Below, piece by piece: positions 36,428 through 42,857 of a DNA stretch of 64,000 nucleotides. Position 1 is the stretch's first letter; each line of letters opens with the position of its first letter. The DNA is from Marchantia polymorpha subsp. ruderalis (lineage: Eukaryota > Streptophyta > Marchantiopsida > Marchantiales > Marchantiaceae): contig AP031352.1 in NCBI GenBank assembly GCA_037833965.1, forward strand, positions 1,592,501 through 1,656,500, written 5' to 3'. The notes below the pieces were generated by a model that did not search any database, had not been told where the DNA came from, and saw nothing but the letters and a program-made list of their open reading frames with translations. The position numbers were made by a program, and so were the translations under genes.

Positions 36428-39400
36428 TCACTCATGAATTAAAACACATGGGACCAAATACTGAACTTTTGCAAAGAAATCCAGAAGATGTGTGCTGAAG
36501 AGAGAGGTAATCCACCTGCATGCCGAGCAAGTAGCTTTAGGCGGAGGTGCTTCGTCTTCTTCTTTCTCAAGTCTTATGCTCGGCATCCTGAGATCCAAAG
36601 CTCTCAATTTCATTCGCAACTCACGGTCGCGTTCAGCAATTGTTTCCGCCATACTTTGAGCTGCTTCAGCATTCTTTGACAGTACATCCATGACCTAAAC
36701 GAAGGTAGACCATTTAGTGGACCTCCGAAGCTTTTTTCTGGAGTTTAGAATTCTCTGCAGAATAAAAGTCTAAACAACTAGTATTTCTAAATTGTATCAA
36801 GACGAATCTGTTAAAACGTTCATATACTAAACTTTCTAAAGCGAAACATCATTTTTCCATTAAAGTAATGTTTTTACACACCTGTTCTCTACTAACAACT
36901 AGTGTCACGACACGAGTCTTGGCCCGAATGGATGCATTTCTTCTGGGAGGTTTCCTAGTTTCGTCCTTTTGAAGCGCCATTTCGCCAATATATTGCCCTG
37001 GTCCTCTTTCTGCAACTGCGTACTCCATTCTTCCTCTGCTAGGCTGAGTAAGTGACCTGGACTCGACAAGAACTTCGCATTGTCCGCTGTTGATAAAATA
37101 CATCTCATCTCCTTCCTCGCCCTGCACAGTATAGTTACCGACATCCTGTTAGAATGTATTTCTGTGAAATTTCCCGCCGATAACAGTGCATGTCCGTCTC
37201 CCCCACTGCAAAGAAAGTAAAGTTTATTGACAAGTGAAGAAAAGCGGAGCGATAATTTAGATCTTGGAAATCCTTCCCTTTTTTAAAAAAAACGATATTG
37301 TTGAACTATATCAATATAGTTCAACAATTGTTCAGATATTGTTCATTTTTTTCATTGAACCTATTCCAGAAAAATGATACTTTAAGACTATTCTCAAGCT
37401 TCCGAGGAAGAAATATAGTTCCGACGTGAGGTAGATGGAACTAAGTCTGGTAAGAGTGGACTTTTAACCGTTAATTTTTCACGCGTTATCCATCTGATTG
37501 TCTAAAATCAAGTAAATTCAAAATGGAGACAAGGACATCTTCTGTAATGGGAGGAGGAATATCAACTTACATTGCGTTGTCTTCTTACAGATTTAACCCA
37601 CATGTGCGTCATAGCGACTCCAGTGTTTCAAGTCATGCCACTCGTTACAGAGCTAGAACGAGCAAAATTTAAGATTTTATGTGGCTTATTGTTTCTTGCC
37701 GTGCCTGATATTCGGTCGTGACAAAGAGGAGATTATTAACCTGTCGTATAATGTATTCGCCCTCTTCAAACTGCTTTTCAACTGGATTCACGATACAAAG
37801 TGCTGCCAGTCCCGCCTCATTTACACCTATGGCTGCCTTAACTTCATCTTCCGTGACAGACATTACAGTAGAGCCTCGTGCGACTTGCACTTTGTACGGA
37901 ACTAGGGGTTCCAACCCAGCCTTTGTCACCCAGTCATGTTGCATGATTCCAGCTAGTGATATTCTCAAATTGGGATCCTTCGTAAGAATGAGAGTCTGCA
38001 TAAGCTTAACTTAGTCAATTTAGTACACAAATAACAATCGCTAAATTGAGTATAATGTAACTATAGCTAAACCGCAAGAGAAACAAAGAATCTTCTCGGA
38101 GACACCTGTACAAATTAGAACATGACGTTAGTCTGTTGTCGAGAAAAATGCATACCAGTATATCCTTCAGTTCCTTCGAAATTTTGATCTTTGAAGAGAA
38201 CGCCAGCTGTGGTTCCCTAGATATGACCAGATCACCTGAATCATTTCCTTGTATCGACAGTGATATTGAAAAGCAAACGGCAGACTACCACTTGGTTTTT
38301 CCTCCTGAAATATGGTATGTACACTGCTTGTAGCTTGCTACAACTCTAAAATCAGTAACTGGGACGATTTACAGTAAACCATCAGTTGCTTCCTTGAACG
38401 GTAGAGTTTGCAGTCTTACAGAGTACAGAAAGAATCTCTCATCACCTTGCATTCGAGACATTTTGAATGGAAGCCATGTCTGACAATACAGGACTCACCC
38501 GAACTCATGTACAATCTAAGTCATGGGTCTAGGAATGTGACACCTTCCTTCTACATTCACCTAGGGTTTTATGATCTCGTCAACGTCAGACAGTCGAACA
38601 CAGACACAGCGCATTTTTCAGCTTCGTCTGCAAATTATTCTGTCTCCCTATCAGTCCTGTGGCAAAGAGCAGAGATTCACCTCCTTGTGGATAATGGACT
38701 GATACATTTCAGCGATGCTCTCAGCGGGAAATGGAATTTTCCCAAACACCATCACATACAGACAAACCTGCATTCACCATGCAGTGATAAACGATGTCCA
38801 TCAAAGTGCCACACACCTTACAGTTCTTCAAAGTTTTTGGGTTTAGGAGATGGATCTATCTAGAAAATCTAGAACAACTTTTGCAGCCAGTGTCAGAGCC
38901 TATGTCTCAAATAAGTCAGCAATTTTCAGTTTGCTTCATTGTTATCAACAATTTTAGCAGTTTGCACCATTATGGTGCAAACTGCTTTGGGAGTCAGAAG
39001 TTATCCAGTTTTGGGAGTTACTTTGAAGTAAACATTTCTCATCCTGACTACATAGGAAATAGAAACAGCCTCTACGTGAAAATTAGAGCCGGTGACGTTT
39101 GGGGATCAGTAATCGTGTAATAACCTACGATGAGTTGTGGTTGAGAGAGGTACCCCAAGCGACCAAAGGTCTGCTGGTCGACCTTGACACTGTCCTCCAG
39201 AACATATTTCTGGAGCTAAGAAAGCGGGAGTTCCAGCGGTGTCATGCATAGAATCTGACTGATCCAGGACCAGATCACAAATTTCATATATTAGATGAAC
39301 ACAAAGGATATATGAATACTTTGCAAGAGTCGTTATATAACTCCTAAGAAACATGGAGTATAAAAGCAAGTCCCTTCAAATACTTGTCCTTTCTTAAAAC

Positions 39401-42400: not shown

Positions 42401-42857
42401 TAGATGTGATCCCTATGAAGTCAAACACTTCCTCCATTTTGTCGTTCGATGGACCCTGATTATCGATTATTGTCATCTCTTGGCTATCTCTCCGACTCGT
42501 TGACCCAACAATCAGGCTTTTCAATTCCTTCCTGAAAATGGTTTCTTTACTCGGACCGCTTGGGTCGATGTACTCTTCTCCACCCTTAGTTGTGGTCGAG
42601 GTTACTACACCTTCAGCGCTGTCCTTCTCCTGCTGACTGAAAAAGCTCTCAAGCCCGAGTTCGAACTCCTCGGAGGAAGAAACACCTTCACGAAAGGCCT
42701 TCTCTTCCGTTGACAGCGTTGAAGGGGCTTGATCATCCTCTCTAGCTTCTTCTTTACTGCTTCTGCGAATTGTGGAATCTACTGGCAGAGTTTTCAGTTC
42801 TTTGCGAAATATGGTCTCTATGCCTGACCCGCCGCCCGATTCTGAAGAACTTGCCAT
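36428..42857 (-). CDS. CaMKK/SnAK-type protein kinase with C-terminal cyclic-nucleotide-binding domain (~896 aa)
   Basis: Twelve exons with GT-AG introns and matching phases: 42857-41665, 41235-41181, 40931-40821, 40696-40631, 40150-39989, 39646-39548, 39258-39154, 38767-38681, 38206-38156, 37995-37741, 37121-36882, 36694-36428. Residues 1-398: low-complexity, with ETIFRKELK repeats. Kinase ~399-670: GCGTYGK loop, Lys432 (YAVK), Glu458, HRDLKPGN (Asp534), DFG (Asp552), [11 protein letters not shown] and tail [10 protein letters not shown]...VTEDEV, which is typical of CaMKK and plant SnAK/GRIK kinases. Residues ~712-835: cNMP-binding fold ([20 protein letters not shown], phosphate cassette GEMAL...RRNAS, terminal helix). 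Expected role is phosphorylating SnRK1/AMPK-like kinases, with cNMP control inferred. Start: first ATG of the long exon; an upstream exon is possible, since CAG precedes 42927 after an in-frame TAG. The 3' end is also uncertain, because CAG|GTGGAT could be a donor. Confidence 0.88.
38956..38986. repeat. 31-bp palindrome in a kinase intron
   Basis: AGCAGTTTGCACCAT at 38956-38970 is followed by one T and the exact reverse complement at 38972-38986. It lies in the intron between the exons ending in ...DLWSLG and starting VCLYVMV.... No mobile-element context is visible. Confidence 0.9.
42042..42818 (-). repeat. Three to four ~90-residue tandem repeats inside the kinase first exon
   Basis: Units start at 42818, 42545 and 42278 (minus strand) with [22 protein letters not shown] and [11 protein letters not shown], giving unit lengths of 273, 267 and 237 nt. 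A degenerate fourth start, [12 protein letters not shown], lies at 42041. Outside the first ~20 residues the units have diverged into acidic, Ser/Thr-rich sequence. The conserved ETI(F/Y)RKELK word is probably the functional part, such as a docking motif. Confidence 0.85.

What the first reader, a model, noticed from the sequence alone, without database searches (positions are those of the whole stretch)
36428..42857. CaMKK/SnAK-type kinase fused to a cyclic-nucleotide-binding domain
Seen: twelve exons join by GT-AG introns with every phase matching, giving one frame with a complete kinase core followed by a cNMP-binding fold that keeps GEMAL...RRNAS and the terminal helix. Known: plant upstream kinases of SnRK1 (GRIK/SnAK) and animal CaMKKs normally lack a CNBD; plant cNMP-regulated kinases known to me are PKG-like with a different kinase class. 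Inference: energy-sensor kinase activation under direct cAMP/cGMP control, possibly a bryophyte-specific innovation.
Basis: partly seen in the sequence, partly recalled or inferred. Interest (0 to 1): 0.88.

Follow-up and report, generated by a model that had tools for sequence, protein, structure and literature searches.

The report
CaMKK-type kinase fused to cyclic-nucleotide domain
A liverwort gene really does join a CaMKK-type protein kinase to a cyclic-nucleotide-binding domain; it belongs to an old kinase family of green algae and early land plants, separate from the known plant energy-sensor activators, and the domain sits where animal relatives carry their calcium/calmodulin switch.

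Summary
Twelve GT-AG exons (minus strand, 42857..36428) give one 896-aa frame with a complete kinase (aa 403-666) and a cNMP-binding domain (aa 717-816). One exon (37995-37741) spans the junction, so the fusion is not two genes joined by mistake. The genome is Marchantia polymorpha. 'Bryophyte-specific' is wrong: the architecture also occurs in Riccia (another liverwort), Mesostigma, Chlorokybus, Chlamydomonas and other green algae, some on single transcripts. The broad class (CaMKK/SnAK-like) is right, but it is not the SnAK/GRIK orthologue: Marchantia has a true GRIK elsewhere, and grouping GRIKs with the bryophyte fusion kinases is rejected (AU p 0.0009, 0.006). In profile alignment the CNBD begins where animal CaMKKs carry their calmodulin-binding segment, so I favour cNMP gating in place of Ca2+/CaM (inferred). 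The moss homologue keeps a decayed CNBD. Published models of this gene are broken: one is truncated by a splice acceptor 10 nt upstream, which a Calypogeia model shares. Yet the CNBD is about 90% conserved between Marchantia and Riccia, so a full-length product is probably made. Ligand binding and gating are untested.

The parts
41665..42857 (-). exon 1: start codon and low-complexity N-terminal region, aa 1-397
   Evidence: same start in P0003 and P0004
41766..41819 (-). motif [18 protein letters not shown] in exon 1, also in Riccia, Calypogeia and (diverged) moss
   Evidence: read; function unknown
41181..41235 (-). exon 2: glycine-rich loop GCGTYGKV
40821..40931 (-). exon 3: AVKIV catalytic lysine
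40631..40696 (-). exon 4: helix C
39989..40150 (-). exon 5: hinge region
39548..39646 (-). exon 6: HRDLKPGN and DFG
39154..39258 (-). exon 7: activation segment, APE
38681..38767 (-). exon 8: kinase C-lobe (missing in model P0003)
38156..38206 (-). exon 9: [17 protein letters not shown]; acceptor CCACAG keeps the frame
   Evidence: same length as moss DIYHAIQHKQLSFHPSIVISKELKDLL
38207..38216 (-). 10-nt stretch GGAACCACAG between two tandem 3' splice sites; use of the upstream one (TCTAG) shifts the frame and gives the 666-aa model MPTK1_2g01330
37741..37995 (-). exon 10: end of kinase, VTEDEV, helix A and first strands of the CNBD; spans the fusion junction in one exon
37840..37857 (-). VTEDEV motif shared with animal CaMKKs (VTEEEV)
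37768..37824 (-). [19 protein letters not shown]: aligns with the calmodulin-binding segment of CaMKK
   Evidence: profile alignment, moderate confidence in these columns
36882..37121 (-). exon 11: core of the CNBD
36927..36986 (-). phosphate-binding cassette [20 protein letters not shown] (aa 774-793)
36428..36694 (-). exon 12: end of CNBD, C-helix, tail and stop (last 28 aa uncertain)

Best explanation
The gene encodes one member of an old green-lineage family of CaMKK-related Ser/Thr kinases that carry a C-terminal cyclic-nucleotide-binding domain. Shown: one continuous gene; a CaMKK-group kinase with its catalytic motifs; a CNBD with a recognisable phosphate-binding cassette; strong conservation of the CNBD between Marchantia and Riccia; a family spread from chlorophytes to liverworts; separation from the GRIK/SnAK clade and from PKG. 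Inferred: the CNBD and its first helix occupy the position of the CaMKK autoinhibitory/calmodulin-binding segment. Without ligand they hold the kinase down; cAMP or cGMP binding releases it, so a cyclic nucleotide takes the part that Ca2+/calmodulin plays in animals. Likely substrates are activation loops of SnRK-type (AMPK-related) kinases, as for CaMKK and GRIK (family knowledge, not tested here).
For: Gene model and domains. Best solved relative by sequence is human CaMKK2, 239 bits, against 163 for the next family, CIPK. The predicted fold of the Mesostigma homologue (mean pLDDT 84.0, pTM 0.71) has CaMKK2/CaMKK1 in the first 20 of the 50 PDB rows shown. Fusion in Riccia, Mesostigma, Chlorokybus, Coccomyxa and others and Chlamydomonas, and in MMETSP transcripts P0010, P0012, P0019, P0127. 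Green clade support 98/95, 98/93, 97/95 and 95/99. CNBD identity Marchantia-Riccia 90/100 and 89/100, kinase 217/257 and 216/267, N-terminus 121/345 and 126/355. Cassette pattern in 33 of 44 selected rows. CaMKK and CNBD-kinase profiles align over 87 columns through VTEEEV into the CaM-binding segment. Cyclic-nucleotide machinery in the same genome: a PKA-R-like ORF with two CNBDs; passages of PMC5159850 describe the cyclase/phosphodiesterase MpCAPE.
Against: No binding, activity or transcript data. The cassette loop is five residues longer between Glu and Arg than the PKA/HCN spacing I recall; Riccia has GEMEL instead of GEMAL; 11 of 44 rows lack the pattern. The moss homologue has lost it. 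P0004 (sources ncbi, uniref, nr, eukprot) is a truncated model without CNBD. By plain identity the kinase is about as far from Marchantia GRIK (41.9%) as from animal CaMKKs (41.1-43.6%). Most of the profile-alignment score comes from the kinase end; the CaM-segment columns have moderate confidence. The Riccia models are themselves faulty in the kinase (P0001 lacks exon 9, P0002 exon 8), which lowers the kinase figures; without exon 8 the P0002 value is 209/245, still under its CNBD.
Confidence: 0.6

Rival explanations
1. A real fusion whose CNBD no longer binds cyclic nucleotides and instead serves as a structural, dimerisation or protein-docking module.
For: Longer cassette loop, GEMEL in Riccia, cassette pattern missing in 11 of 44 rows, and decay in moss. 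Non-binding CNBDs are known in other families (recalled).
Against: Cassette Glu and Arg are kept in 33 of 44 rows, including distant algae and all 3 liverwort rows tested; the CNBD is at least as conserved as the kinase between Marchantia and Riccia.
Confidence: 0.25
2. In Marchantia the main product is the truncated 666-aa protein made by the upstream splice acceptor; the CNBD form is minor, a splice switch, or not made.
For: P0004 (MPTK1_2g01330) and the Calypogeia model P0006 end in the same kind of frame-shifted tail. The Calypogeia tail shifted by 10 nt is compatible with the in-frame kinase peptide at 27 of 36 positions (2000 shuffles: mean 9.8, max 17), so both readings exist there.
Against: The truncation removes the end of the kinase fold, so that product is probably inactive; the in-frame CNBD is about 90% conserved between Marchantia and Riccia; the two gene models may share one prediction error.
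Confidence: 0.12
3. It is the liverwort SnAK/GRIK, the SnRK1-activating kinase, put under cNMP control.
For: The moss homologue is called GRIK1 in its record; identity to Marchantia GRIK (41.9%) is as high as to animal CaMKKs; grouping GRIKs with the whole green family is not rejected (p 0.448).
Against: A separate Marchantia GRIK with six stretches 66-82% identical to an angiosperm GRIK; GRIK clade including it 100/100; AU rejects GRIKs plus bryophyte fusion kinases (p 0.0009; 0.006) and the two Marchantia kinases alone (p 1.8e-6).
Confidence: 0.05

Closest known systems
Animal CaMKK1/CaMKK2
   Same: Closest kinase domain among solved structures by sequence, and for the Mesostigma homologue by predicted fold; shared VTEEEV element and segment order after the kinase.
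   Different: A CNBD where CaMKK has its calmodulin-binding segment; shorter insert where animal CaMKKs have their Arg-Pro-rich insert (name recalled); separate clade.
Plant GRIK/SnAK (SnRK1-activating kinases)
   Same: CaMKK-like kinase of green plants, about 40% identical; possible SnRK-type substrates.
   Different: No CNBD among the GRIK rows listed; separate clade; own gene in Marchantia.
PKG, including the Marchantia PKG-like gene with several CNBDs and an AGC kinase
   Same: Kinase and CNBD in one chain; databases label several homologues 'cGMP-dependent protein kinase'.
   Different: AGC kinase class, CNBD exons before the kinase; 26% identity to the Marchantia PKG kinase over 207 columns.
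Algal CaMKK-CNBD-response regulator proteins (metagenome, e.g. P0087)
   Same: Same kinase and CNBD order, same clade.
   Different: Extra C-terminal receiver domain PF00072. The rows are unnamed metagenome sequences; I take them for Mamiellophyceae (inference).

Membership tests
CaMKK group kinases | kinase domain closest to CaMKK among solved structures | tested here: met
CaMKK group kinases | VTEEEV element after the kinase | tested here: met
CaMKK group kinases | Ca2+/calmodulin-binding segment | tested here: not met
   that position holds the start of the CNBD; CaM binding itself not assayed, so filed as a CaMKK relative, not as a CaMKK
GRIK/SnAK | kinase in the GRIK clade | tested here: not met
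GRIK/SnAK | phosphorylates the SnRK1 activation loop | not testable with these tools
   none
PKG/PKA (AGC, cNMP-dependent) | AGC-class kinase domain | tested here: not met
   26% identity to Marchantia PKG; no PKA/PKG among the best 60 of 2704 PDB sequences
cNMP-binding domain proteins (PF00027) | Pfam score over cut-off | tested here: met
   57.8 bits against 27.5
cNMP-binding domain proteins (PF00027) | cassette Glu and Arg for ribose and phosphate | tested here: met
   GEMAL...RRNAS, with a longer loop than usual
cNMP-binding domain proteins (PF00027) | binds cAMP or cGMP | not testable with these tools
   none

The most novel reading that the evidence does not exclude
A messenger swap built into one kinase family: the CNBD took over, or was the ancestor of, the regulatory slot that binds calmodulin in animal CaMKKs. 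Green algae and liverworts would switch a CaMKK-type kinase with cAMP/cGMP; the moss kept a dead CNBD. In liverworts a conserved pair of splice acceptors 10 nt apart would choose between the cNMP-regulated form and a truncated form.
Probability: 0.25. Interest if true: 0.8.

Novelty: new variant of a known kind. Interest (0 to 1): 0.62.

Why it matters
Plant cyclic-nucleotide signalling lacks accepted effector kinases; a 2018 review, PMC6174285, calls their existence in plants controversial (passages seen). This family offers a defined candidate present in a model liverwort and in Chlamydomonas, both easy to mutate. It would link cNMP signals to CaMKK-type kinase signalling and show one regulatory slot used for two different second messengers.

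Tried and rejected
SnAK/GRIK orthology: considered first, because the moss record is named GRIK1; rejected after the trees and the finding of a separate Marchantia GRIK. Bryophyte-only origin: rejected. PKG/PKA membership: rejected; the PKG row in that tree is a very long branch that joined the animal CaMKKs at 32/14 support, which I do not trust. First tree: the three outgroup rows were very long branches and left the base unresolved; leave out these three and a number of other rows (46 rows, 33, 34). Alternative exon-8 donor at CA|GTCC with the TCTAG acceptor: keeps the frame but loses residues that match the moss protein; rejected by eye. Ligand choice cAMP or cGMP: the residue after the cassette Arg is Asn here and varies among homologues, so no prediction. 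A sigma-70 promoter scan upstream is not meant for plants and found nothing. Literature: ten searches listed no paper whose title or shown abstract concerns this gene or a CaMKK-CNBD fusion; I looked at passages of four papers and saw only listings of the rest. The library holds only open-licence PMC papers; a recalled PNAS paper on Marchantia cAMP was not held. Absence from vascular plants is not shown: no vascular-plant fusion is named in the 120 listed rows, but other mosses are not named either.

Full report
What is there. I rebuilt the gene from the sequence, choosing splice sites by hand. Pfam finds a complete kinase at residues 403-666 (E 2.8e-63) and a cNMP-binding domain at 717-816 (E 1.1e-15, 57.8 bits against a cut-off of 27.5). 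Catalytic elements are present: [27 protein letters not shown]. Exon 10 (37995-37741) codes for the end of the kinase, the VTEDEV element and the first strands of the CNBD in one stop-free stretch, so the fusion cannot come from joining two genes.

Organism and existing models. Over their shared stretch (55% of the query region) the protein is 100% identical to Marchantia polymorpha MPTK1_2g01330 (P0004); P0003 (AXG93_2931s1120) is another model of the same gene. The genome held is 241 Mb in 9 contigs. Neither model is complete. P0003 lacks exons 3 and 8, starts exon 9 further upstream, and has another C-terminus. P0004 ends at 666 aa because exon 9 starts 10 nt upstream (TCTAG|GGAACCACAG|CTGGCG), which shifts the frame. 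The second acceptor keeps the frame, and the peptide it gives matches the moss protein in length and letters.

The tandem acceptor. The model of Calypogeia fissa, a liverwort, ends in the same kind of tail (GTTAG...). Its tail read 10 nt later is compatible with the in-frame Marchantia kinase peptide at 27 of 36 positions; 2000 shuffles (first five residues held) gave a mean of 9.8 and a maximum of 17. Thus the in-frame reading is conserved in Calypogeia, and both models use the same upstream site. This is either a conserved alternative acceptor or one shared annotation error; I cannot tell which without RNA. Conservation argues that the full-length form is made. Between Marchantia and the two Riccia models, identity is 90/100 and 89/100 in the CNBD, 27/29 and 27/29 in the C-helix, 217/257 and 216/267 in the kinase, and 121/345 and 126/355 in the N-terminus. 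The kinase figures are lowered by errors in the Riccia models: P0001 lacks exon 9, and P0002 has 7/22 in exon 8; without that exon P0002 has 209/245.

Not bryophyte-specific. The homology search with the kinase-CNBD region gave 5572 proteins at E <= 0.001 (7996 candidates scored, best 120 listed), with kinase plus PF00027 in two Riccia species, Mesostigma (Mesvir1), Chlorokybus (Chlat1), Myrmecia, Botryococcus (Botrbrau1), Coccomyxa, Trebouxia, Symbiochloris and others (I read the three JGI codes from memory). A second search, with the moss protein, added Chlamydomonas (CHLRE_10g428650v5), Ostreobium, Bryopsis, Gonium and Chlorella. Some come from transcriptomes (MMETSP rows P0010, P0012, P0019, P0127), so kinase and CNBD share one transcript in algae. 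A group of metagenome sequences (P0087 and similar) adds a receiver domain (PF00072). Aphanomyces P0029 has a different arrangement, with two CNBD-like units before the kinase and a PP2C domain (PF00481). One EukProt row with a C-terminal CNBD (P0125, species not given) falls outside the green clade in an unresolved place, so the fusion may be older than the green lineage or may have arisen twice. One row inside the clade, Tetraselmis P0061, has no PF00027 match listed.

Moss. The Physcomitrium record 'GRIK1 isoform X6' (P0005) aligns through the CNBD (EKRFQAGEYAKGQGKQGNKSCFMNCSKCEILV) but has no PF00027 listed and has lost the cassette Glu and Arg: a decayed CNBD, 30/96 identical to Marchantia.

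Kinase class. Among solved structures the best match by sequence is human CaMKK2 (239 bits) and the next family is CIPK (163 bits); no PKA or PKG row is among the best 60 of 2704. Four trees, which share most of their rows, place the green kinases in one clade (98/95, 98/93, 97/95, 95/99). GRIKs form another (100/100; 99/99). The own genome holds a real GRIK at C3:28626274-28627478; in locus L033 six stretches are 66-82% identical to Ziziphus GRIK and two others 25% and 43%, and it groups with angiosperm GRIKs. Holding GRIKs and bryophyte fusion kinases together is rejected (AU p 0.0009; 0.006), as is holding the two Marchantia kinases alone (p 1.8e-6); holding GRIKs with the whole green family is not (p 0.448). 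The groups were named after the first tree had been seen. Plain identity does not separate the two: 41.9% to Marchantia GRIK, 39.0-39.9% to two angiosperm GRIKs, 41.1-43.6% to three animal CaMKKs, 26.1% to Marchantia PKG. So the gene belongs to the broad CaMKK/GRIK group but is neither the GRIK orthologue nor inside the animal CaMKK clade. In the own-genome search with this kinase and CNBD (101 of 281 candidates scored) the matches outside this locus are at most 44% identical; that search did not list the GRIK either, so it does not prove that no second copy exists.

The CNBD. A loose cassette pattern, GE...R.[AS][STN], is found in 33 of 44 rows that I chose from the hits, some of them near-duplicates; 11 lack it, the moss among them. 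In Marchantia the spacing between Glu and Arg is 14 residues; the usual spacing in PKA-R and HCN is 9 (recalled), P0125 has 9 and Chlamydomonas 10. Riccia has GEMEL. Binding is therefore likely but not certain, and the ligand cannot be named. AlphaFold of the Mesostigma protein (46 rows, mean pLDDT 84.0, pTM 0.71) gives a kinase and, from residue 389 on, a helix, a strand roll and a long C-terminal helix; blocks in the CNBD range from 72 to 97 in pLDDT, with 81, 78 and 55 at the very end. The 50 Foldseek rows shown are all kinases, the first 20 CaMKK2/1, so the CNBD assignment rests on Pfam and on PDB sequence matches, best PKA RII-alpha at 1.3e-15.

Where the CNBD sits. Profile comparison of 15 animal CaMKKs with 24 CNBD kinases (23 of the green type and P0125) aligns 87 columns with short gaps (probability 99.75): kinase end, VTEEEV, and on into VILVKSMLRKRSF of CaMKK against [13 protein letters not shown] of the fusion. 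In CaMKK that segment binds calmodulin and lies next to the autoinhibitory element (recalled). Most of the score comes from the kinase end; the last 14 columns have confidence digits 4 to 7. This is the basis for the mechanism I favour: the CNBD, reached by the same linker, controls the kinase as Ca2+/calmodulin does in animals.

Pathway context. The genome also codes for a PKA regulatory subunit-like protein with RRTGVSAE and two CNBDs (C3:10.86 Mb) and a PKG-like gene with several CNBD exons and an AGC-type kinase (C2:1.57 Mb). Passages of PMC5159850 describe MpCAPE, an adenylyl cyclase/phosphodiesterase of basal plants with motile sperm, and cyclase-like sequences in Mesostigma, Klebsormidium, Chlamydomonas, Coccomyxa and others; several of these lineages keep the fusion.

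Verdict. A real and well-conserved family architecture for which I found no description (ten paper searches named in Tried and rejected; open-licence papers only). It is a new variant of a known kind, a CaMKK-related kinase plus CNBD, not a bryophyte invention and not the orthologue of the SnRK1-activating GRIK.

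Noticed in passing
L033 (G000 C3:28623500-28630500): A true GRIK/SnAK gene in the same genome, intron-rich, with stretches up to 82% identical to an angiosperm GRIK.
   Followed up: yes
L035 (G000 C3:10860500-10865500): PKA regulatory subunit-like ORF with RRTGVSAE and two CNBDs.
   Followed up: partly
L034 (G000 C2:1567500-1577400): PKG-like gene with several CNBD exons and an AGC-type kinase.
   Followed up: partly
38207-38247: Four AGs end 41, 29, 10 and 0 nt upstream of exon 9, only the last in frame; the 10-nt tandem acceptor is apparently shared with Calypogeia.
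   Followed up: partly
42252-42818: Repeated [13 protein letters not shown] motif (copies starting at 42818, 42545, 42278) in the N-terminal region, with basic RRSS/RRDS sites nearby.
   Followed up: no
P0140, P0016, P0018, P0010, P0137: Several algal homologues begin with MGC..., a possible N-myristoylation/palmitoylation signal (recalled motif); the liverwort proteins do not.
   Followed up: no
P0087 and similar metagenome proteins: CaMKK-CNBD fused further to a response-regulator receiver domain.
   Followed up: no
P0125 (EukProt, species not given): CaMKK-type kinase with a C-terminal CNBD and a canonical-length cassette that falls outside the green clade: a hint that the fusion could be older.
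   Followed up: partly
36428-36514: Last 28 residues of the model are doubtful: both Riccia models stop at the equivalent of CSACR and P0003 splices elsewhere.
   Followed up: partly
59906-59980: tRNA-Arg (acg) gene.
   Followed up: no
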